Shown: positions 1,897-62,788 of the stretch, piece after piece | How positions within the stretch are numbered: the stretch's first letter is position 1 | Layout: each line of letters starts with the position of its first letter | From: Thermoplasmatales archaeon E-plasma | GTDB lineage: Archaea; Thermoplasmatota; Thermoplasmata; Thermoplasmatales; Thermoplasmataceae | Direction of reading: 5' to 3' | DNA length: 64,000 bases | Assembly: GCA_000496135.1 (NCBI GenBank) | Contig: KI542675.1 | Coordinates: 714,059 to 778,058 of the forward strand | Program-made: the position numbers and the translations under genes | Notes under the pieces: model-generated | Seen by the model: only the letters and a program-made list of their open reading frames with translations | Databases searched by the model: none | What the model was told of the DNA's origin: nothing

Positions 1897-3870
1897 TTAA
1901 TTTTTTTTCCTGAGACGATCGCGAATAAAGTGCCTGACATCATAGAAAAATATGTTTTCATAAGGGCATGCCTCAACGCAATCACCGATGCCAACACATC
2001 TTGAGTTCTTGAATTCCCCTGTTGATATGAAGTTTCCAGGCTGTGTGGATAAACCCACAGGGCATGCAGTGGCGCAATCCTTTGTCTTACAGTTTACGCA
2101 TTGCATTGGATCATTTACCTTCAATCTGAAGAAACCAAACTTGCTTATCCATCTGTTAAAATTTCCCCAGTGACAGTAACCAGTGTTTATGCAGCCATAA
2201 TTGCCGAAATAAGGCATTGTGAGAAAAACCGCATACCACATAAAATCGAATAATAAAATGTAGATAAAGAAGAGGGGATCGGTGCCATAAATACTGATTC
2301 CAAAAATATGGTATGAATTCAGGATCGAAAATATGGCACCAATGGCAAGGGATGTATATACCGTAAGGGAAACTACACGGTATATTTTATTTCGCTCCCC
2401 TTCTCTGCTGATATATCTGGCTGTTGGTGAGGTCCTGTTAAATTTTTTCATTGAATCATAAAATGTTCCCTGGTACATCAATGGCGCGGTGCAGAAAACT
2501 GAGCACAATTGTCTTGCACCAAATAAAAGAGACAGTATTCCGCTAATAAAATACGTTAGAAGCATAGGCACAATCAGATATGGAGCTAAACCTCCACCAG
2601 CACCTATTCCCATAGACCATCCAATGAATGGATAAATTTGTGCATTGGGAATTATGAAACTGGGAATTAGAATAGAATAAATTGCATATGCAAAAATTGT
2701 GAGACTTAACCTGATCTTATTTTCCAGTTCCCTTGTTTTAAGAATCTTAAATACAACCAGTGAACCCATTTCGAATCCCATCATAATTAGAAACCATGAT
2801 GAGCCTGTAATGCTGCCGATAACTATTACCACATCATAAAGAAAAGAAAGCATTATGCCATAGGCCGATCCTGATATTGCAGTCAGTGACATGGCATTGA
2901 TAAAAGTACCTGGTCCGAAATACTGAAAATCAAAGGTAGCACCCATTCCAAATTCCGCAATAAATATGGAAATCAGAAAAGTCGTTGACCACCTTCTGTT
3001 GGCCAGCCAGTATACCTTTTTTCCACCTTTAAAGTAAGAGGCGTTTATTATGGCATAAAGGTAAATGATCATTTCCACTATGATTGCAATGGAAACTATG
3101 GAATTCACATAATCATACTGATACAGGAGGATTCCACCCATCATCAGGCTATATGCGAGAATAATCAATATGATATATCTGGCAAAACCACCGGTTAAAA
3201 AATTCTGTCTATATAACGATTCAAACAGATATACAAGAAGGGTTGTCATAATGGCCCCTCCTGCAAAGACGGAAAAGAAAAGCCATTGGGAATAATTTAA
3301 TGCCGTCGGTGTGAGAAACATTATTACCGATTGAAACGTGATGAATATGAAAGGAGATTTATCAGTTTTCCTGATTGAAAGTAATGCTGTCAGGAACATC
3401 TCCAGGGCCATTGGAAAAATAAACCAGAAAGACGAGATGGAATTGAATATTATAGATAAAGTACTGAATGGTGAAACATAACGGAAAAATTGACCGGAAA
3501 TGTATGAATTGAAATCAAAGCTCATGAGGAATTCATTTAGGAGTGTTACAAAAATTATAATGAGGGTACTGACTTTTACCTGGACAAGAGGCCTCTCGAC
3601 ATGCCTAATGAACAGGATCAATGGATACACCATCTCAAGAGACATTATTCCAAGAGACAGAATGATTACATTCTCAGCAGAGAAATTATGAAATTCAAAG
3701 AAATAAATGGCTGGCCCAAGGAGCATTCCATTCATCATTGCCAGCAACAGATAGACAATGACTATTCTTACAGGACTCTCATGGAATCTGGAAAGATAAA
3801 GAATATAAGAAGCAGTAATTCCCATTCCAGTTGCCAGTGCAGTTAGAACGGCCAATGAAATGAGGTACAT
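1897..3870 (-). CDS. Large membrane protein with C-terminal ferredoxin-type iron-sulphur domain
   Basis: A 657-residue protein with well over ten membrane segments, followed by a cytoplasmic-type ferredoxin tail. Around residue 595 there is a cysteine cluster 'CVNCKTKDCATACPVG', and a second one 'CVGIGDCVEACPYEN' follows about 20 residues later. Together they could hold one or two cubane clusters. A further pair in the membrane part, 'CSVFCTAPL', resembles the Cys-x3-Cys motif of NapH/NosR/CcoG-type membrane ferredoxins. It probably carries electrons to or from the membrane quinone pool, but donor and acceptor are not evident. A TATA-like TTTTAAATA lies 20-30 bases upstream of the ATG, which supports this start. 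Confidence 0.8.
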   Translation of the reverse strand: MYLISLAVLTALATGMGITASYILYLSRFHESPVRIVIVYLLLAMMNGMLLGPAIYFFEFHNFSAENVIILSLGIMSLEMVYPLILFIRHVERPLVQVKVSTLIIIFVTLLNEFLMSFDFNSYISGQFFRYVSPFSTLSIIFNSISSFWFIFPMALEMFLTALLSIRKTDKSPFIFITFQSVIMFLTPTALNYSQWLFFSVFAGGAIMTTLLVYLFESLYRQNFLTGGFARYIILIILAYSLMMGGILLYQYDYVNSIVSIAIIVEMIIYLYAIINASYFKGGKKVYWLANRRWSTTFLISIFIAEFGMGATFDFQYFGPGTFINAMSLTAISGSAYGIMLSFLYDVVIVIGSITGSSWFLIMMGFEMGSLVVFKILKTRELENKIRLSLTIFAYAIYSILIPSFIIPNAQIYPFIGWSMGIGAGGGLAPYLIVPMLLTYFISGILSLLFGARQLCSVFCTAPLMYQGTFYDSMKKFNRTSPTARYISREGERNKIYRVVSLTVYTSLAIGAIFSILNSYHIFGISIYGTDPLFFIYILLFDFMWYAVFLTMPYFGNYGCINTGYCHWGNFNRWISKFGFFRLKVNDPMQCVNCKTKDCATACPVGLSTQPGNFISTGEFKNSRCVGIGDCVEACPYENIFFYDVRHFIRDRLRKKN

Positions 3871-3939
3871 TTTACTCGATCATCATAAAAAGTTATTTAA
3901 AACTGGTGAATCGTAAATATTATTCTAACACATTACTTT

Positions 3940-4551
3940 TCATGAATTTACATATTCTTCCAGAACTTTTTTCTTTCTCTGGCTATATTCCTCGTCAGTT
4001 ATGATTTTGTGTTCATTAAGCATTTTCAACTCAAATAGTCTCTTACCCAGCGGGCTTAAATTTGTGGGAGAAACTTCCTTATTTGATTCCTGGGCGGCAG
4101 AGATATTAGATTTACCTGTTACCATTGGTGATGGTTCATTTTCTTTCTGCGCAGAAGAGATCTTTGGCTTATCATCGTATACCGATGCCTTTGTATCTGT
4201 AGCATTCGTTGATTTCTCAGGTTCTAATGGTTCCCTGGAATGGACATCTTTTCTTCCTGATTCATTCGTATCATGGTTGATCGCCGTATTAGGGTCATTA
4301 ACAGACCGACCAGAACTTACATTTTCATTCTTAGTTTTCAATGGTTCATTTGATTCCTTTTTCTCACTCTTCACTTCAGTTTCTTTAGGTTTTGGAGTAA
4401 TGGAATCTTTTGATGTTGACTCAGTATTGCCTTTAGGCTGGTTATTCTTTTGATCCGAAGGATTGGACAGTTGTGTAAGCTTCGTTCCACATTTCTGACA
4501 GAATTTTGAACCTTCCGGAAGAATTGCTCCGCATTTAGGACATGTTATCAT
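3940..4551 (-). CDS. Zinc-ribbon / disordered linker / SHOCT-like protein
   Basis: The N-terminus is a rubredoxin-like zinc ribbon ('CPKCGAILPEG' then 'CQKCGTKL', two CxxC pairs). A polar, Ser/Lys/Glu/Pro-rich linker of about 120 residues follows, probably disordered. The last 30 residues ('LFELKMLNEHKIITDEEY...') match the short SHOCT helix pair (hydrophobic helix, 'G/K-I-I-T-DEEY'). Such proteins are common in Thermoplasmata but have no settled function; SHOCT is regarded as an oligomerisation or membrane-targeting module. A TATA box on the minus strand (about 4573-4580) sits about 25 bases upstream of the ATG, implying a leaderless transcript. Confidence 0.75.
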   Translation of the reverse strand: MITCPKCGAILPEGSKFCQKCGTKLTQLSNPSDQKNNQPKGNTESTSKDSITPKPKETEVKSEKKESNEPLKTKNENVSSGRSVNDPNTAINHDTNESGRKDVHSREPLEPEKSTNATDTKASVYDDKPKISSAQKENEPSPMVTGKSNISAAQESNKEVSPTNLSPLGKRLFELKMLNEHKIITDEEYSQRKKKVLEEYVNS

Positions 4552-35479: not shown

Positions 35480-35689
35480 TTTACTGAATTAACTTTTAGT
35501 TTAAAATAGTTGACATTCCCATAGGTAAAAATATAGTTAATTAAGTGAATGATTATGAAGAGACATGTTTTCAAAATAGCATTTTCCATTAATTTACTAT
35601 ATTTTATTAACAGATGTTTCCTGATCAATTCCTTAGAGGCAACATCTACATAACACTTATAAGGCAAAATGATCTCACCATTTGGCTAT

Positions 35690-35726
35690 GATGTCAGCCT
35701 TTAAACGCGAAAAAGCTGATGACATC
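35690..35726 (+). promoter_or_regulatory. Inverted repeat in the leader of the hydrogenase-like operon
   Basis: GATGTC-AGC at 35690-35698 can pair with GCT-GAT-GACATC at 35715-35726, leaving a three-base bulge, in the leader between a TATA-like CTTATAAGG (about 35657) and the GGGTG ribosome-binding site of the first gene. It may act as an operator or RNA hairpin. No other gene is evident at 35480-35741; a 63-codon minus-strand frame there begins inside promoter DNA. Confidence 0.35.
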
Positions 35727-35741
35727 TGTTAGGGTGTAAAT

Positions 35742-36689
35742 ATGATAGGGGGCATCATAGAAACGGCTATACAGATAATAGGAGTTTTAATCCTTGCACC
35801 GCTGGTACAGGGAATTTATGAGAATTTGAAGGCTAAGACTGAATCAAGGAAAGGTCCTCCAGTTCTTCAGCCATATTATGATCTGTTTAAATATCTTAAA
35901 AAGGAGAGAAATACAACTACCACAGGTGGAGGAATATACAGGCTCGCTCCATACATGGTTTTCTCCATATTCTTTACAATTTCATTTGTAATACCGGTTG
36001 TTATTCCTGAACCAACAGACTTCGCGCCCATGGTTGATTTTCTGGGAGGAGCCATGCTGTTCTCTCTGGCTTCTGTTATTCTAATTATTGCAGCGCTTGA
36101 TTCAGGGAGCAACTATTCTGCTCTTGGGGCCAGCAGATCAGCAACATTTTCAGCACTGGCAGAACCTACATTAATCCTTGTATTTTTCGCTGTTGCAATT
36201 CAGACTGGAACAAATAATCCTTACATCACAAACGAATCAATAGCAAACAGTTTTCCAACATATCTGTCACTTACACACATTCTGTCAATGATAGCATTTT
36301 TCATGATATTTTTATTTGAAACCGGAAAACTTCCCCTGGAAAGCTCCGGATTGTCAGAAATGGGGATGATTGATGAAGGGAGGGTTTTTGAATACGGGGG
36401 GAGGGACCTGTTCCTCATTAAGGAGTCAGCATGGATGAAGCAGTATCTACTTGGTTCTGTCCTGCTTAATGTTTTTCTGTTCCCATGGTTTATGCAGAAT
36501 TCTGTACTCGGTGCCATCGAAGATATTCCCATTATGATTGCAAAGTGGATATTTCTAATTCTCATTGTCATTTTCATAGAGCAGAGTCTTGCAAAGGTTA
36601 GATTGTTCAAGATAGCTGATTATCTTGCAGTCTCTTTCACCCTGTCGATTTTTTCTGTTGTCATATTTGTATTGGGAGGTCTGGTATGA
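35742..36689 (+). CDS. Hydrogenase-4/complex I-like membrane subunit (HyfC/NuoH type)
   Basis: 315 residues with about eight membrane helices. 'LAPLVQGIYENLKAKTESRKGP' and 'PYYDLFKYLKKE' at the N-terminus and 'FIFLFETGKLPLESSGLSEMGM' in the middle are the conserved loops of the NuoH/HyfC family, which joins the hydrophilic arm to the proton pumps. First gene of a six-gene operon whose members mostly overlap by a few bases. Confidence 0.88.
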   Translation: MIGGIIETAIQIIGVLILAPLVQGIYENLKAKTESRKGPPVLQPYYDLFKYLKKERNTTTTGGGIYRLAPYMVFSIFFTISFVIPVVIPEPTDFAPMVDFLGGAMLFSLASVILIIAALDSGSNYSALGASRSATFSALAEPTLILVFFAVAIQTGTNNPYITNESIANSFPTYLSLTHILSMIAFFMIFLFETGKLPLESSGLSEMGMIDEGRVFEYGGRDLFLIKESAWMKQYLLGSVLLNVFLFPWFMQNSVLGAIEDIPIMIAKWIFLILIVIFIEQSLAKVRLFKIADYLAVSFTLSIFSVVIFVLGGLV

Positions 36690-58021: not shown

Positions 58022-58187
58022 TCTTTTTATGTAGCATTGATTTATTAACGTTTTGGTCAGTAATTCTGCGTTTGACCCGGTTGAATCAAGTGAAAAAGGA
58101 TAGGTAGGTATCCAATTATTTAATTAATCGGATACGTGAAACTAGAAAAGATATCATTCATTGTATCGGAAGTTTCAACTCACTTTT

Positions 58188-59483
58188 TTATGTTCTTCCC
58201 CCTTGAGATGGCATTAATTTTAAAATTGTTGGGTCGTTGGAAATTTCATTAATTATGTGCATGGAGAGTGCCCTCCAAAAATTACAGTTTGGGTCTTTTT
58301 TGTACAAGTCATGATAACGAATATACGAATTGCCTGGACATCCACCTCCACACATACTCTGAACAGGGCACGATTGGCAATCTTCTATGACATCGGTAAT
58401 TCTGTTTTGAAAATTCAGGCCAGTGGATGAATTTAATATATCCTCTAAGTTTTCGTTAAGCATATTTCCCATTTTGAAACTAGGAACATATTCAACTGCT
58501 GAACATGGGTATACGTCTCCGTTTTCCTCAACCATTATCATGTTAACCCCCGTTCCACAATTAGTAGGCCATGTTTTCTTACCAGCATTCACAGCTATTA
58601 GATTCCAAATCATAGCTTGGAATATAGGGATTCTAAAACTTTGTCCTGCTTTTAACTTCTCTATCCATAAGTCAAAGAATTTTTTTAATGGACCGACCAT
58701 TTCTTCCGTATTGGGAATAATATCTTGTCCCTTTGAGATTGCGTTACCCAGTGAAAGCATCGGTATCAGCGCAATATCTTTAAACCCAAAATTACTGAGA
58801 TAATTCAATACAGCTTCAGGGTATTCAATGTTTCTCTTTGATAAAACAGCCAGACAACTAAGTCTAACATCTTCAACCGAATTCTTAAGCTCATTTATAC
58901 CTTTTTCAATAGAATTAGAAGTCCCCCCACCATTTATCGTTGTCCTTAATTTATCATTTATTGGAGGAGGTCCATCTAGACTTATTCCAACTTCTATATT
59001 AAACTCCTTAACGAATGATATAAAATCAGCGTTTATTCGTGTCCCATTCGTTTGTATCCTTAATGTGAGCCAATTTTTTAAATCCCTACAGTCAATTCTC
59101 CTTAATGCCGTGATTATTTCATTTAATCTAAAAGTTGCCTCACCACCGTGAAACTGTATAGTTACTTTCCGGTTATTATTGGAAGCGTATGATATTGCTT
59201 TCTTTAAGGTAACCACTAACACATCTATAGATATATTCTTCGGAGAAACTCTTTGGTTAGCTCTTACGCAATAAATGCAGTCAAGGTTGCATATGTCCGT
59301 CGTATTTATTACAATAGTATGTAAAGATTTGTCTATTCCGTTGGGCGAGTTTATTATAGGAAACAAAGATTTAAAAACACTATCTAAATCAGTCATTTCC
59401 AGAGAGATTGCCCATTTTTTAGTCTGTTGCTCCATTACATATAGCTTACCAGATGGTAGGGGCGTTGAAATGAGTTTTTCCAT
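58188..59483 (-). CDS. Radical SAM/SPASM peptide-modifying enzyme
   Basis: 431 residues. The SAM-cluster motif is 'TDICNLDCIYC' (Cys65, Cys69, Cys72), followed by 'QFHGGEAT' (the GGE SAM-binding site). The C-terminal SPASM region binds two further clusters: 'PTNCGTGVNM', 'GDVYPCSAVE' and 'CQSCPVQSMCGGGCPGNS', with a last Cys in 'DPNCNF'. This layout is that of anaerobic sulphatase maturases and, more often, of RiPP maturases that build thioether or C-C links. No sulphatase is nearby. It faces a tiny ORF (59571-59666) and an exporter across a divergent promoter, so a peptide-maturation role is likely. The transcript start is probably close to the ATG (TATTATATATC about 25 bases upstream). Confidence 0.9.
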   Translation of the reverse strand: MEKLISTPLPSGKLYVMEQQTKKWAISLEMTDLDSVFKSLFPIINSPNGIDKSLHTIVINTTDICNLDCIYCVRANQRVSPKNISIDVLVVTLKKAISYASNNNRKVTIQFHGGEATFRLNEIITALRRIDCRDLKNWLTLRIQTNGTRINADFISFVKEFNIEVGISLDGPPPINDKLRTTINGGGTSNSIEKGINELKNSVEDVRLSCLAVLSKRNIEYPEAVLNYLSNFGFKDIALIPMLSLGNAISKGQDIIPNTEEMVGPLKKFFDLWIEKLKAGQSFRIPIFQAMIWNLIAVNAGKKTWPTNCGTGVNMIMVEENGDVYPCSAVEYVPSFKMGNMLNENLEDILNSSTGLNFQNRITDVIEDCQSCPVQSMCGGGCPGNSYIRYHDLYKKDPNCNFWRALSMHIINEISNDPTILKLMPSQGGRT

Positions 59484-59570
59484 CGCAAATAATGAGCGAT
59501 ATATAATAAAAAACTTTCGCCTAATATATGAGGGAATATTTGTAAATAGTAAATCTTAATAACTAACCTA

Positions 59571-59666
59571 ATGAGAACAGTTATTAACATATATGGAAAT
59601 GGAGAGACGTTCACTATAAGCGCTGCACCTGAGGAAGAATATATTGAGCCATTGGTTTGCGCGTAA
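59571..59666 (+). CDS. Candidate RiPP precursor peptide (31 residues)
   Basis: A 32-codon ATG frame between the radical SAM gene and the exporter. The peptide starts 'MRTVINIYGNGETFT', continues with an acidic stretch 'AAPEEEYIE' and ends 'PLVCA', with its only cysteine next to last. An N-terminal leader-like half and a Cys near the C-terminus fit a substrate of a SPASM maturase. A TATA-like TAAATAG lies about 25 bases upstream, so the message could be leaderless; no ribosome-binding site is seen. A frame this short can arise by chance, so context is the main support. Confidence 0.45.
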   Translation: MRTVINIYGNGETFTISAAPEEEYIEPLVCA

Positions 59667-59730
59667 AACTGAGTTATATTTTTTAAAATAGTTGAGAGTA
59701 AAATTTTTAATTTTTTTTATAAATAAAGTC

Positions 59731-60909
59731 ATGAAAAATTACACTTTGCTCATCATAAATTCGTTTTTAACTCGTTTAGCTACGTCTTCATATTATCTGA
59801 CGATTTTATGGATAATGTATTCTATCACCAAATCACCATTTCTGGCAGGACTGGCTGATGGGATATCAGCGGCGCCACTTTTACTCGGGTTCATTGTTGG
59901 AGCTTTAGTATATAGAAATAAAAAAAAGAAATTATTAGCGATTCAGTCAAGTTTGTTAAGAGTAATATTCTTGTGTTTTATCTTTTTCTCTCTCTTATAT
60001 AATAACTATATAATAATAATATCTACGATATATTTATCAACTTTCTTTATAGGCCTTTCCTCTAATATTATGTCTTCCCTTAGGGTTCTTTGGCTAAAGG
60101 TATTTCTAAATGAAGATAAATACAAAAGTGGTAGTTCAACCATATCGGCTATTGGCTCTTTGGCCCAGATAAGTGGTTATATATTAGCGGGCTTTTTTCT
60201 TTTGACAAGATTTTCTATATCTATATTTGTATTAATATTCTTTTATCTAATATCTATTATGCCACTTCTGTTCATTTCATACTCAGAAATAAGTGACGAT
60301 AGAACGAAAGCAAATCTAAAGGATATTGTTTTCGCAGGCTGGAATTACATTAAAAAAAGTGAGAGCACTAAAGAATTAATTATATTAGACATTTGTGTTG
60401 GTCTAATATTTGGTGAAATCGGAATATTACTGACTGTCCTCACAAAGACTACGTTGGATTTATCTCCTACTTTTTTAGGTTTCTTCTTTGTTTCAATGGC
60501 AGCTGGAACTGCTTTTGGAGCTTTACTAATTAAAAAAATACACTTGAATTTTATGTATACATTCACTCTATTTACTATGATTGGTGCAATCTCAATAGCT
60601 GCATTAGGATTTTCGATTTCCATCAGTTCTACATTGATATTAATTTTTGCGGTAGGTATAAGCGAAGGCGCAACTAATGTTCTTACCTTTTTTACTTATA
60701 TTAAAATCATTCCAAAAGAAATGACAACTAGAATTCAAGGAATCTTTGATACATTCATTTTAGGAATAACCGCTTTTTCAGGAATTGTAGCTGGATTTTT
60801 AATTGAAGATGTTGGGTTAGTCGATACTTTATACGTAGAAAGCTTTTTCCTTGTCATAACTATAATTTTAGCAACAAGATTCAAGGAACTTAAACTAATC
60901 AAAGGATAA
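59731..60909 (+). CDS. MFS-family exporter
   Basis: About 392 residues with 12 predicted helices. N-terminal 'LTRLATSSYYLTILWIMY' and 'SPFLAGLADGI' and the internal symmetry of the major facilitator superfamily are clear; it resembles MacA/EntS-type drug and siderophore exporters. A TTG at 59692 is in frame, but TTTTAAAATA at 59681-59690 would serve as TATA box, so the ATG at 59731 is preferred. It lies 64 bases after the candidate peptide and may export the mature product and give self-immunity. Base composition is more AT-rich than the housekeeping genes. Confidence 0.85.
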   Translation: MKNYTLLIINSFLTRLATSSYYLTILWIMYSITKSPFLAGLADGISAAPLLLGFIVGALVYRNKKKKLLAIQSSLLRVIFLCFIFFSLLYNNYIIIISTIYLSTFFIGLSSNIMSSLRVLWLKVFLNEDKYKSGSSTISAIGSLAQISGYILAGFFLLTRFSISIFVLIFFYLISIMPLLFISYSEISDDRTKANLKDIVFAGWNYIKKSESTKELIILDICVGLIFGEIGILLTVLTKTTLDLSPTFLGFFFVSMAAGTAFGALLIKKIHLNFMYTFTLFTMIGAISIAALGFSISISSTLILIFAVGISEGATNVLTFFTYIKIIPKEMTTRIQGIFDTFILGITAFSGIVAGFLIEDVGLVDTLYVESFFLVITIILATRFKELKLIKG

Positions 60910-61221
60910 AATTTCCGCTCACTTACAATATTTTTGCATTTTTTATGTGAATATAATTGTTGATGGTGGTCTGCAATTAGGGGACCTAACCAATGGCCCA
61001 TTTACGGTTTTTTGCACAGTGGTATAAGAAATGATGGTCTCTTTACTCGCCTAAACCGTAATATACAGTTCCGAGAATGTGATTTCTGCTTATGAATGGT
61101 ACAATTATTACTATTATAAAGCAGATAAATTTAACCCTCAATTCTTCCGATTAAGTAGATCGTTTTATGGTATTTTTAGGTGTCTTTGATTAAACTTTCT
61201 TTCTAAGAAAGGTTATCGCAA
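60910..61221. other. Intergenic region between exporter and GC-rich island
   Basis: No gene seen. It holds a nine-base inverted repeat, TTACGGTTT at 61003-61011 and AAACCGTAA at 61054-61062, which could be a hairpin arm or an element end. Confidence 0.35.
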
Positions 61222-61280
61222 AGGAAAGCCCGTATATCATCAATTTGAAATTTTAAGGGCTTTCCTGCGAACCCCCCTCC

Positions 61281-61303
61281 CCGCCGAGCGGAGCAGTTTT
61301 TTT
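61281..61303 (+). terminator. Hairpin plus T7, possible plus-strand terminator
   Basis: CCGC-CGA-GCGG followed by AGCAG and seven T (61297-61303). It would stop transcripts coming from the exporter gene. Confidence 0.45.
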
Positions 61304-61308
61304 GGAAC

Positions 61309-61342
61309 AAAAAAACCTACGGGTAGCTTTAGCTACACGTAG
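61309..61342 (-). terminator. Hairpin plus T7, possible minus-strand terminator
   Basis: A nested hairpin CTACG/CGTAG and GTAGC/GCTAC at 61317-61342, followed on the minus strand by seven T (61315-61309). If the structured RNA is on the minus strand this could be its 3' end. Confidence 0.45.
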
Positions 61343-61806
61343 CCCACACGTGTGCAACACGGGGGGTGCGAAGCACAGGACACGGGGGGTCGGTGGACAG
61401 CCCAAAGGGCTGGACAAATCAGGGTAATAGCCCATTGCGAAGCCATAAGTGAACGCCGAAGGAGGACACGTGGCTATCCCTGATTAGACCTCCGAGACGA
61501 GTGGAAGCAAAAAGAGGGGGGGAATTTGTGAGTGAAGCGAGGACGGAGGGGTGAATTTTTGCTGGAGCGAAAGCCCTCCCTCCGTTCAGGAGGTTGGCGT
61601 GTCGTAGAGTGTCCTGTGCTACGCACTTGTGCGAGCGAGGCGGGGGTAAAGGAGGGCTTTGGGGTCTGACCTTTCTCCCGAAAGGGCAGAAAAGCAGAGA
61701 AGGGTAAATAACCATAAGCGGACTGCGGAATAAAGGGTTTATCCTGAAATGGAGCAGTCATACAGGTAGGGGTGGCTGACGCATAGATATAGGCTTGCTT
61801 GTTTGA

Positions 61807-61944
61807 TTAATTCAAGTAATATCCAAACAAATAAAATGTAGCACCGAAAACTAAAAGAATGTTAGATATTGCCTTTCCGAACATGCACGTGTAGTCATAA
61901 TGATTTTGCTCGTGTATGTGGAGTGTCCTTATTCCAGTAAACAT
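61807..61944 (-). CDS. 45-residue single-helix membrane protein
   Basis: From the ATG at 61944: a polar, His-rich start ('MFTGIRTLHIHEQNHYDY'), then 'ISNILLVFGATFYLFGYYL', one membrane helix, ending at the stop. GAGGTA just before the ATG resembles the GAGGCGGTA that precedes the start at 63208. Function unknown. Confidence 0.4.
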   Translation of the reverse strand: MFTGIRTLHIHEQNHYDYTCMFGKAISNILLVFGATFYLFGYYLN

Positions 61945-62000
61945 TACCTCAAAATCCTAATAATATATTGGAATGTAGCTGTATCTAATACAAAAAAGTC

Positions 62001-62087
62001 AGTATTACTGAAAAATCCACAATAGTAATACGCCCTCTCTCCTCTCTTGTTCCTGTTCAATTAGTATAGCTTAAGTAATACTAATTG
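62001..62087. repeat. Cluster of AGTATTACT/AGTAATACT motifs, possible origin or operator
   Basis: AGTATTACT at 62001-62009 pairs with AGTAATAC at 62024-62031, and the perfect ten-base inverted repeat CAATTAGTAT / ATACTAATTG spans 62058-62087 and contains another AGTAATACT. Such repeated palindromes next to a small-gene operon suggest a binding site for a RHH-type regulator or a replication initiator. No other gene is evident between 61945 and 62225. Confidence 0.45.
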
Positions 62088-62225
62088 TTGTTTTCGTTTT
62101 CATCGGGGCAGTAGTAATAATATGAAAAAGTCAGTTAGGGTTTTTCCCATTATCTGATACTTGCCTACCTCATTCTTTTCAGATACCATTAAAAACCTTT
62201 CCTGTGTAATAATATCGGTGTAAAT

Positions 62226-62570
62226 ATGACCGAACAACCAAACGAAAAAATAAATAAGATATTGGCTGAACTGCCAATAGAAAAATCTCTCCTGACTAAA
62301 GAAAAGTCAGACCTTGTGGGCGATGAGCTGGTAATAATGAATATAGAACCAGTGCATACGCAATCACCAGAAGGAGAAAGTAGGGACGTTAATCTCTATA
62401 CTGCACGAAATAACAAAACGGATAGCGTGGTTATTTTCTTTGGCTCTGCCGTAATGGATAAACAAAGTGTCAAGTTATCGGACCATGTTGTTATTGACCT
62501 GCGAATAAGCAAAGAAGGTCGGAAATACTACCTTTTCCTTGTCCTTCACAACTACGAGGTGGAAAAATGA
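62226..62570 (+). CDS. Small protein of a plasmid/virus-like operon (OB-fold-like)
   Basis: 114 residues, mostly beta: 'DELVIMNIEPVHTQSP', 'VNLYTARNNKTDSVVIFFGSA', 'HVVIDLRISKEGRKYYLFLV'. The strand pattern and basic loops recall single-stranded-DNA-binding OB folds, but I cannot confirm it. GGTG before the ATG is the ribosome-binding site. First of three genes whose ends overlap (ATGA). Confidence 0.55.
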   Translation: MTEQPNEKINKILAELPIEKSLLTKEKSDLVGDELVIMNIEPVHTQSPEGESRDVNLYTARNNKTDSVVIFFGSAVMDKQSVKLSDHVVIDLRISKEGRKYYLFLVLHNYEVEK

Positions 62571-62788
62571 TGACGACTACAAGCTTTAAAGTGGACAGCG
62601 ATAATATAGAGCTTGTTGTGGAAATGGCAAAAACGAGAGAGTTAAGCAAAATCCTTAACTTCCTTCTTCGGGAATATGCAAAGGCTCAAGGCTTCACCTC
62701 GTCTTACAACAAAATACAAGCATTAGAAGATAAATTAACAAAGAAAGACGCACAATATGAAGCCTTAAAAAAAGAGGTGCTGGAATGA
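62567..62788 (+). CDS. Small RHH/coiled-coil protein
   Basis: 73 residues. The first half ('TTSFKVDSDNIELVVEMAKT...SKILNFLLREYAKAQ') looks like a ribbon-helix-helix DNA binder and the second half is a heptad-like coiled coil ('LEDKLTKKDAQYEALKKEVL'). Overlaps both neighbours by four bases (ATGA). A good candidate for binding the nearby AGTAATACT repeats. Confidence 0.5.
   Translation: MMTTTSFKVDSDNIELVVEMAKTRELSKILNFLLREYAKAQGFTSSYNKIQALEDKLTKKDAQYEALKKEVLE

What the first reader, a model, noticed from the sequence alone, without database searches (positions are those of the whole stretch)
61222..61760. GC-rich island of nested complementary stems: candidate unknown large RNA
Seen directly: a sharp composition change over about 540 bases, four long-range complementary pairs (9, 17/18, 14 and 10 base pairs), at least six local hairpins, a duplicated CACGGGGGGT (61358-61367 and 61381-61390), and hairpin-plus-T7 signals facing both directions at its left end. 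Established: functional RNAs in AT-rich archaea stand out by GC content. Inference: a large structured non-coding RNA, perhaps carried by the mobile element beside it. It does not show the conserved cores of RNase P, SRP or rRNA that I know. Pairing 61366-61383 with 61609-61626 would cross the 61570/61651 stem, so a pseudoknot or two alternative folds are possible.
Basis: partly seen in the sequence, partly recalled or inferred. Interest (0 to 1): 0.82.

Follow-up and report, generated by a model that had tools for sequence, protein, structure and literature searches.

The report
Folded DNA landmark of archaeal plasmids
A GC-rich stretch found again and again in mobile DNA elements of acid-loving archaea keeps one pattern of matching strands even where its letters change, so it is predicted to fold, likely as DNA rather than RNA, and likely serves as the launch site where the element's own predicted DNA pump takes hold to move it between cells.

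Summary
The GC island is real and conserved. It is an internal part of an about 11.6-kb element integrated at a tRNA-Cys gene. Matches, some short, occur in 23 of 117 genomes of the order, the window's own included. One copy lies on plasmid pPO1 of Picrophilus oshimae, apparently the GC-deviant region "IG2" left unexplained in 2011. Rfam has no match at E<=5; indels speak against a protein. Hairpin loops mostly obey the GNA/GNNA rule of ultrastable DNA mini-hairpins (28 of 33 core places), and no shared upstream promoter was seen: I favour folded DNA over RNA. Of five pPO1 proteins compared, only a HerA/VirB4-fold ATPase matches intact integrated elements of this family. It lies within 16 kb of 13 of 24 core loci (chance about 0.8%). 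Best reading: a cis-acting DNA transfer (oriT/clt-like) site. The function is inferred; RNA and replication/partition remain open.

The parts
61183..61655 (+). whole conserved island (family 1)
   Evidence: blastn 82-87% over 408-461 nt to 8 other genomes; pPO1 homologue; drawn on the + strand because the GNA loops are there and that strand is 60-63% purine in 7 of 7 copies examined
61183..61270 (+). left module: AT-rich palindrome (about 61187-61216) followed by the stem 61216-61230/61257-61270 with a long loop (TATTATTA in most copies; TATATCAT here)
   Evidence: 17-row alignment A1; 5 of 11 pairs with changes on both sides, 92.5% of cells paired, slid controls 28-54%; model R1 finds it in 19 of 117 genomes of the order
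61279..61285 (+). P0 outer closing stem, 5' arm CCCCGCC
   Evidence: pairs with 61639-61645; 6-11 bp in 8 of 9 full family-1 copies, 5 bp in G014; compensatory CCCGACC/GGTCGGG in G042
61639..61645 (+). P0 outer closing stem, 3' arm GGCGGGG
61366..61383 (+). P1 long-range stem, 5' arm
   Evidence: 9 family-1 copies (some identical): 155 of 162 cells Watson-Crick, 10 of 18 columns with more than one Watson-Crick type (arms placed by hand); on MAFFT alignment A5 of 8 copies, P1 plus core stem: 9 of 25 pairs with changes on both sides, 97.8% of cells paired, slid controls 34-55% with no double change
61609..61626 (+). P1 long-range stem, 3' arm (one A-A mismatch in this copy)
61417..61423 (+). P2 stem, 5' arm AATCAGG (pairs with 61479-61485)
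   Evidence: 7 of 7 pairs Watson-Crick in 6 of 6 copies counted; T-A to G-C compensation in G066
61479..61485 (+). P2 stem, 3' arm CCTGATT
61507..61562 (+). core: stem GCAAAAA/TTTTTGC around G-rich sides and a hairpin. This copy is a variant, GAGGGGGGG...GGGGTGAA, with an imperfect inner hairpin
   Evidence: present in 7 of 9 full family-1 copies; G047 has GGGATGAA and G042 has lost it; outer stem covaries. The exact pattern GAGGGGTGG-N5-35-GGGGTGAATTT (not matched by this copy) is in 19 of 117 order genomes, 33 places, 0 for the reversed pattern
61579..61593 (+). P4 hairpin CCTCC-GTTCA-GGAGG
   Evidence: CCTTC-GTTCA-GAAGG in pPO1; CTTCC-GTGCA-GGAAG in G031
61349..61376 (+). two GNA-loop hairpins: CGTGT-GCA-ACACG and GTGC-GAA-GCAC (the latter an alternative to P1)
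62226..62788 (+). 114-aa gene with a predicted five-strand, OB-like fold and a 73-aa gene, conserved beside family-1 islands
   Evidence: found in 7 (114-aa and 73-aa) of the 20 other fetched loci besides the window's; model pLDDT 79; Foldseek matches all E>0.01, among them RPA, PrgE of pCF10, gene V protein and ribosomal S12
58094..58108 (+). left attachment repeat AAAAGGATAGGTAGG; right copy at 69665-69679 (beyond the window) at the tRNA-Cys gene 69668-69739
58188..60909 (.). variable cargo on the island's 5' side: radical SAM/SPASM protein and MFS transporter
   Evidence: upstream 1000 nt alike in 1 of 91 pairs of 14 copies, island alike in 81 of 91

Best explanation
The island is a conserved site of a family of plasmids and integrative elements of Thermoplasmatales archaea that likely folds as DNA, rather than as an RNA product, and likely is the cis-acting place where the element's predicted HerA/VirB4-type ATPase engages the element to launch its transfer. 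Shown: conservation, compensatory pairing, location in mobile elements, GNA/GNNA loops, and co-occurrence with the ATPase gene. Inferred: the strand carrying the GNA loops (+) folds when single-stranded or extruded by supercoiling; the outer and P1 stems would bring the left hairpin and the G-rich core together as a receptor; the ATPase, predicted to sit in the membrane and carrying a C-terminal ExETGxK nuclease-like motif, would load there and pump DNA, with the neighbouring OB-like protein perhaps coating single strands. This would be an archaeal oriT/clt equivalent without a relaxase.
For: Covarying stems: P1 and core stem, left module (105), P2 (117), P0 (119). GNA triloops: 22 of 40 distinct triloop hairpins with stems of 5 or more are G-N-A against 2 T-N-C, in 15 islands of both families; 200 shuffles gave mean 0.69, maximum 3. 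Core hairpin: 28 of 33 places GNA or GNNA; three distinct GNNA loops (GATA, GTTA, GCCA; 4 places) break the RNA GNRA rule. Rule for DNA: PMC4686876, passages. pPO1: its GC-deviant regions took none of the Tn5 insertions in 30 plasmids, and stable DNA structure was suggested as a reason (PMC3177234, whole text). Of five pPO1 proteins compared (of six annotated) only the ATPase matches intact family-1 elements, 28-34% identity; 13 of 24 core loci and 7 of 25 left-module places have one of 45 strong ATPase places within 16 kb, about 0.8% by chance. ATPase fold: HerA 4d2i E 1e-11, VirB4 4ag5 9e-11; the pPO1 ATPase passes the Pfam cut-offs for HerA central domain and AAA_10. Two N-terminal helices read as hydrophobic. 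Precedents: TdtA, a HerA-like DNA-donation ATPase of a Thermus ICE (PMC5365140, passages); single-protein transfer acting on clt (PMC3218068, passages). Archaeal conjugative plasmids lack recognizable relaxases (PMC9905601, passages).
Against: No experiment shows DNA folding, transfer or ATPase binding. RNA folding energy is significant on both strands and stronger on the minus strand (z -8.4 against -6.2). The Vienna DNA parameters as saved list no special loops, so energies cannot separate the strands. G-T against A-C mismatches barely favour the + strand: 12 to 7 in local hairpins, with 52 other mismatches; 2 to 0 in P1. In one search one measure, further pair types, was not above the shuffles (70 of 500). 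Single-stranded intermediates of pPO1 were looked for and not found (PMC3177234). 11 of 24 core loci and 18 of 25 left-module places have no ATPase within 16 kb (some are remnants or contig ends), and many ATPase homologues were not seen beside an island (7 of 20 stretches had hairpin clusters). Family 2 was first found by scanning around ATPase genes, which biases that set; the pattern scan does not use the ATPase, but its pattern came from that set and pPO1. Family-2 elements share more with pPO1 (resolvase, Cdc6-like), so the ATPase is not the only possible partner. Structural DNA also suits replication or partition.
Confidence: 0.4

Rival explanations
1. The island is a structured non-coding RNA of the mobile element, for example a regulatory RNA or an RNA partner of the ATPase in the manner of the phi29 packaging RNA (recalled). 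The GC content, stems and conserved core would then be RNA features.
For: Large covarying structure with significant RNA folding on both strands; G- and A-rich core sides; 5 of 8 distinct GNNA core inserts are also GNRA.
Against: No Rfam match. GNA triloops dominate and 3 of 8 distinct GNNA inserts are not GNRA. Homology stops at the 5' end with no shared promoter: no TATA-like box in the 80 nt upstream of 10 of 14 copies. A promoter inside the left module, or on the other strand, was not excluded.
Confidence: 0.25
2. The island is a replication or partition site: a single-strand initiation or priming site, or a centromere-like site. The ATPase and ParA-like proteins would act in segregation, not in transfer.
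For: The elements are plasmid-like: Cdc6-family protein and serine recombinase in pPO1, AAA/Cdc6-like, ParA and resolvase in the family-2 element of G029. A hairpin origin is known in other archaeal elements (SNJ2; PMC13107129, passages).
Against: The pPO1 authors place the origin in the AT-rich IG1 beside cdc6 and found no single-stranded intermediates. No rolling-circle Rep among the element proteins scanned (Pfam; NCBIfam 83; PHROGs 84). The site is far larger than known hairpin origins (recalled).
Confidence: 0.25
3. The island is a recombination or cargo-capture boundary, an attachment-like or IS200/IS605/IS91-like end, at which foreign genes are joined to the backbone.
For: Similarity between copies ends at the 5' edge: upstream alike in 1 of 91 pairs, island in 81 of 91. 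Cargo lies on that side in the window and in other elements.
Against: The element's own ends are tRNA attachment repeats elsewhere. Only 3 of 91 pairs are alike downstream of the island, so the sharp 5' edge may reflect general divergence. No TnpB lies near: 7 TnpB-domain places in the genome, none at this locus. A boundary does not explain the folded interior of some 400 nt.
Confidence: 0.07

Closest known systems
clt site of actinobacterial plasmids and ICEs, served by the single FtsK-like translocase TraB
   Same: Integrative element, a single pump of the FtsK/HerA superfamily, an intergenic site proposed as its target, no relaxase found
   Different: TraB reads 8-bp repeats at clt through a HTH (PMC5365140 passage); here a large folded site with a G-rich core and a HerA/VirB4-fold ATPase
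TdtA/NurA transjugation module of a Thermus ICE (PMC5365140, passages)
   Same: HerA-like membrane-associated ATPase plus nuclease on an integrative element
   Different: No structured cis site appears in the passages read; the nuclease is a separate NurA there, here a nuclease-like motif is fused to the ATPase
Relaxase-type oriT
   Same: Intergenic, hairpin-rich cis site of a mobile element (recalled)
   Different: No relaxase gene found; about 450 nt with long-range pairing
Phage N4 virion RNA polymerase promoters (PMC4496689, passages)
   Same: DNA hairpins extruded by supercoiling and read as structure, with strand-dependent loop behaviour; the kinship of their loops to GNA is recalled
   Different: N4 promoters are single small hairpins for a polymerase; here many hairpins organised by long-range stems, and no such polymerase seen
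pPO1 region IG2 (Angelov et al. 2011, PMC3177234, whole text)
   Same: Homologue: the match at 3772-4105 lies in the gap between annotated genes; identity with IG2 is inferred from position and GC content, as the text prints no IG2 coordinates
   Different: The paper records only unusual GC content and absence of Tn5 hits; no structure, homologues or function were reported

Membership tests
Rfam structured RNA families | Match to a family covariance model | tested here: not met
   0 matches at E<=5 over 60900-62230, 4227 families; the gathering-level scan of the window gives only two tRNAs and a fluoride riboswitch, all elsewhere
TnpB guide RNA (IS200/IS605) | TnpB-like gene adjacent | tested here: not met
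   PF07282 at 7 places of the genome (5 over the cut-off), nearest on contig C3 at 581 kb, island at 775 kb; IscB not searched
Relaxase-type oriT | Relaxase encoded by the element | tested here: not met
   No relaxase family among the proteins scanned: 8 of the window element, 9 of one family-2 element, 5 of 6 of pPO1 (Pfam; NCBIfam 83 and PHROGs 84 for the window element and two G014 proteins)
Relaxase-type oriT | nic site | not testable with these tools
   needs biochemistry
clt/TraB transfer site | Element encodes a DNA translocase of the FtsK/HerA superfamily | tested here: met
   HerA/VirB4 fold by Foldseek; the window ATPase passes no Pfam cut-off and has no PF01580 match
clt/TraB transfer site | Array of 8-bp direct repeats | tested here: not met
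   only two-copy direct repeats of 8-11 nt in the window's island and of 21-26 nt in that of pPO1
Rolling-circle origin | Rep/HUH endonuclease in the element | tested here: not met
   no such match; Rep-Arvir was not searched with a profile of its own
GNA/GNNA DNA mini-hairpins | GNA or GNNA loop closed by at least two G-C pairs | tested here: met
   loops; rule from PMC4686876. Not every hairpin has two G-C pairs next to the loop: 17 of 31 GNA triloops with stems of 4 or more are closed by C-G
GNA/GNNA DNA mini-hairpins | Forms as DNA in the cell | not testable with these tools
   needs probing in vivo
Mobile integrative element (host of the island) | Tyrosine integrase and tRNA attachment repeats | tested here: met
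   integrase: PHROG_1 5e-7, below the Pfam cut-off in the window element, over it in the family-2 relative; 15-bp repeat and tRNA-Cys

The most novel reading that the evidence does not exclude
The island is the first recognised member of a class of large natural folded DNAs: a single-stranded or extruded DNA receptor of about 450 nt, built from GNA mini-hairpins around a G-rich core. A HerA-type motor recognises it to start transfer, which would explain how archaeal elements transfer DNA without a relaxase.
Probability: 0.2. Interest if true: 0.88.

Novelty: new variant of a known kind. Interest (0 to 1): 0.68.

Why it matters
No relaxase is recognised in archaeal conjugative plasmids (PMC9905601, passages), so how archaeal elements mark and start DNA transfer is an open question. 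This gives a concrete, sequence-defined candidate site. It has two related families, a free plasmid in a culturable archaeon (pPO1) and a candidate partner ATPase, so the question can be tested at the bench. If the DNA reading holds, it would also be an unusually large conserved folded-DNA element.

Tried and rejected
Protein-coding: rejected; in eight pairwise alignments 0-2 of 5-13 internal gaps are multiples of three. Known RNA: rejected. TnpB guide RNA: considered because a zinc-finger-like reading frame seemed to lie downstream in G014; rejected. Element end: the island first looked like the left end; attachment repeats at tRNA genes placed the ends elsewhere. Rolling-circle nick motif: TTCTTG-like letters at the 5' edge and TATTATTA in the loop recalled nick sites of rolling-circle systems, but no Rep was found; left as a lead. 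Viral spread: the left-module pattern has 0 hits in IMG/VR; the core pattern has 2, both inside reading frames that read like phage terminases (recalled label), about what I roughly estimate for chance. Strand test by G-T against A-C: too weak. DNA energy test: uninformative. Sequence search of solved structures with the ATPase: 0 matches at E<=0.1. VIA-align was busy. Print: 1 paper holds both pPO1 and Picrophilus oshimae; 0 papers hold four of Thermoplasmata, noncoding RNA, mobile element, secondary structure, Picrophilus; two broader searches listed nothing on this site in their titles and abstracts. Subscription journals are mostly not in the library.

Full report
WHAT WAS CHECKED. The composition jump, the complementary pairs and the strong folding are all present. 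Rfam has no match even at E<=5.

WHERE IT LIES. The window is part of a 1.66-Mb archaeal genome. The island sits inside an integrated element. A 15-bp repeat (AAAAGGATAGGTAGG) occurs at 58094 and at 69665, the latter running into a tRNA-Cys gene at 69668-69739 just beyond the window. Inside are, from left to right: cargo (radical SAM/SPASM protein and MFS transporter), the island, small genes, an insertion-sequence transposase (IS256-like by recall; partly masked), a 618-aa ATPase and an integrase. In G014, G013, G039 and G059 a 12.4-kb element with the island is 98.5-99.9% identical along its aligned pieces and ends, in G014, at a tRNA-Val gene (in G013 the match is in two pieces).

HOMOLOGUES. 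By blastn 23 of 117 genomes of the order have a match at E<=0.001; nine of them, the window's own included, have long ones, the rest short ones, some under 40 nt. A model of the left 98 nt finds 19 of 117. Outside, the only hit among 72,556 plasmid records is pPO1 of Picrophilus oshimae; there is none in 50,697 phage records. In pPO1 the match falls in the gap between annotated genes ending at 3708 and starting at 4263. The 2011 paper (whole text) reports two oppositely placed intergenic regions of deviant GC, free of Tn5 insertions, suggests stable DNA structure, and proposes the AT-rich one as origin. The other is, by position and composition, this island (my inference).

STRUCTURE. P1 is the best long-range complementarity in 8 of the 9 family-1 copies searched and second best in G047. 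Its letters change greatly between G000, G031/G042 and pPO1 while pairing holds: 155 of 162 cells Watson-Crick, 2 G-T, 5 other. On a MAFFT alignment of 8 copies, P1 plus the core stem have 9 of 25 pairs with changes on both sides and 97.8% of cells paired; slid controls reach at most 55% and no double change, though one of five measures, further pair types, was matched by 70 of 500 shuffles. G042, which has lost the core, was not in that alignment. The left stem is supported by 17 rows. P2 and P0 hold with isolated compensations. The window's own copy is slightly worn: one mismatch in P1 and an imperfect core hairpin. pPO1 carries a second core-like repeat just outside P0.

A SECOND FAMILY. 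Scanning 20 stretches around ATPase homologues for GNA hairpins showed clusters in 7 of them. All 7 share with pPO1 a core of 41-48 nt at 90-96% identity: GAGGGGTGG, a hairpin, GGGGTGAATTT. A genome-wide pattern scan finds this in 19 of 117 order genomes at 33 places, with none for the reversed control. The window's own island does not match this exact pattern; it is a variant. In a phylum sample the pattern occurs in 11 of 389 genomes, all 11 among the 47 sampled from the order and none in the other 342. A P1-like stem is present in the 6 family-2 islands examined, without variation. The family-2 element of G029 carries an integrase, the ATPase, ParA, an HNH protein, a resolvase and an AAA/Cdc6-like protein.

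DNA OR RNA. Among distinct perfect triloop hairpins with stems of at least 6, 18 of 28 have a G-N-A loop and none a T-N-C loop; with stems of at least 5, 22 of 40 and 2. Shuffles give 0.69 on average for the latter. In family 2 one aligned hairpin shows GAA, GGA and GTA. In the core hairpin 28 of 33 places, or 13 of 18 distinct inserts, have GNA or GNNA loops (in a few inserts the script had more than one loop to choose from). GNA and GNNA loops with at least two G-C pairs are the published rule for ultrastable DNA mini-hairpins (PMC4686876, passages). The related copies are not independent, RNA hairpins with such loops are possible, and folding energies do not decide. I put DNA at about 65%.

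PARTNER. Five of the six annotated pPO1 proteins were compared with the fetched loci. The ATPase alone matches the intact family-1 elements; a partial Cdc6 match in G002 and a partial methyltransferase match in L075 lie beside remnants or at a contig end. Family-2 loci were not in that comparison. The ATPase lies within 16 kb of 13 of 24 core loci and 7 of 25 left-module places; a random place would have 0.8%. Without it, among full-length family-1 copies, are G015 and G066, whose contigs end within 2.4 kb, and G042 and G047, which look like remnants. The model (pLDDT 82) has two N-terminal helices and a fold closest to HerA and VirB4. Invariant C-terminal residues in an ExETGxK setting resemble PD-(D/E)xK nucleases; that label is recalled. 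The family-2 ATPase of G029 lacks the N-terminal helices by eye, with a hydrophobic small protein encoded next to it. The 114-aa neighbour has a predicted five-strand fold; its matches are individually weak and largely OB folds by recall, among them RPA, PrgE of a conjugative plasmid and gene V protein, but ribosomal S12 as well.

MECHANISM. Transfer is the reading that joins these facts: precedents exist for single HerA/FtsK-type pumps on integrative elements, and archaeal conjugative plasmids lack relaxases. Every step from folding to pumping is inferred. Replication or partition and an RNA role are each about a quarter.

VERDICT. A real, conserved and, as far as my searches go, undescribed structured site, likely DNA, of Thermoplasmatales mobile elements; function proposed, not shown.

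Noticed in passing
window 58188-60909; L033 3334-5518; L034 3214-5827; L038 4284-7417: The 5' side of the island carries radical SAM, SPASM, nitroreductase-family, MFS or ABC genes in several elements, as if peptide-modification cargo were repeatedly placed there (the peptide reading is recalled).
   Followed up: partly
L033, L035, L036, L037: A 12.4-kb element, 98.5-99.9% identical along aligned pieces, sits in four genomes of four different genera (G014, G013, G039, G059), suggesting recent transfer.
   Followed up: partly
window 35675-35735 (+): Fluoride riboswitch just over its gathering score directly before a gene that reads like an NADH-dehydrogenase/hydrogenase membrane subunit (35742-36689; label recalled), not a fluoride channel.
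   Followed up: no
G107, G043, G002, G039 (1.43 Mb), G109, G045, G033: Copies seemingly reduced to the left about 100 nt; in G107 both lie within about 1 kb of tRNA-Leu genes, like remnants of lost elements (G045 and G033 flanks only partly seen).
   Followed up: partly
L042 and L046 (G030, G043): The only pair of 14 copies with alike upstream flanks (73.5% over 937 nt), a place to look for the empty site.
   Followed up: no
L080 3715-3765 (pPO1): A second core-like repeat beyond P0, with its own outer stem of different letters.
   Followed up: no
L075 (DARG01000028.1): A contig binned as Candidatus Parvarchaeota carries the left module and a piece like the pPO1 methyltransferase; possible mis-binning or transfer.
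   Followed up: no
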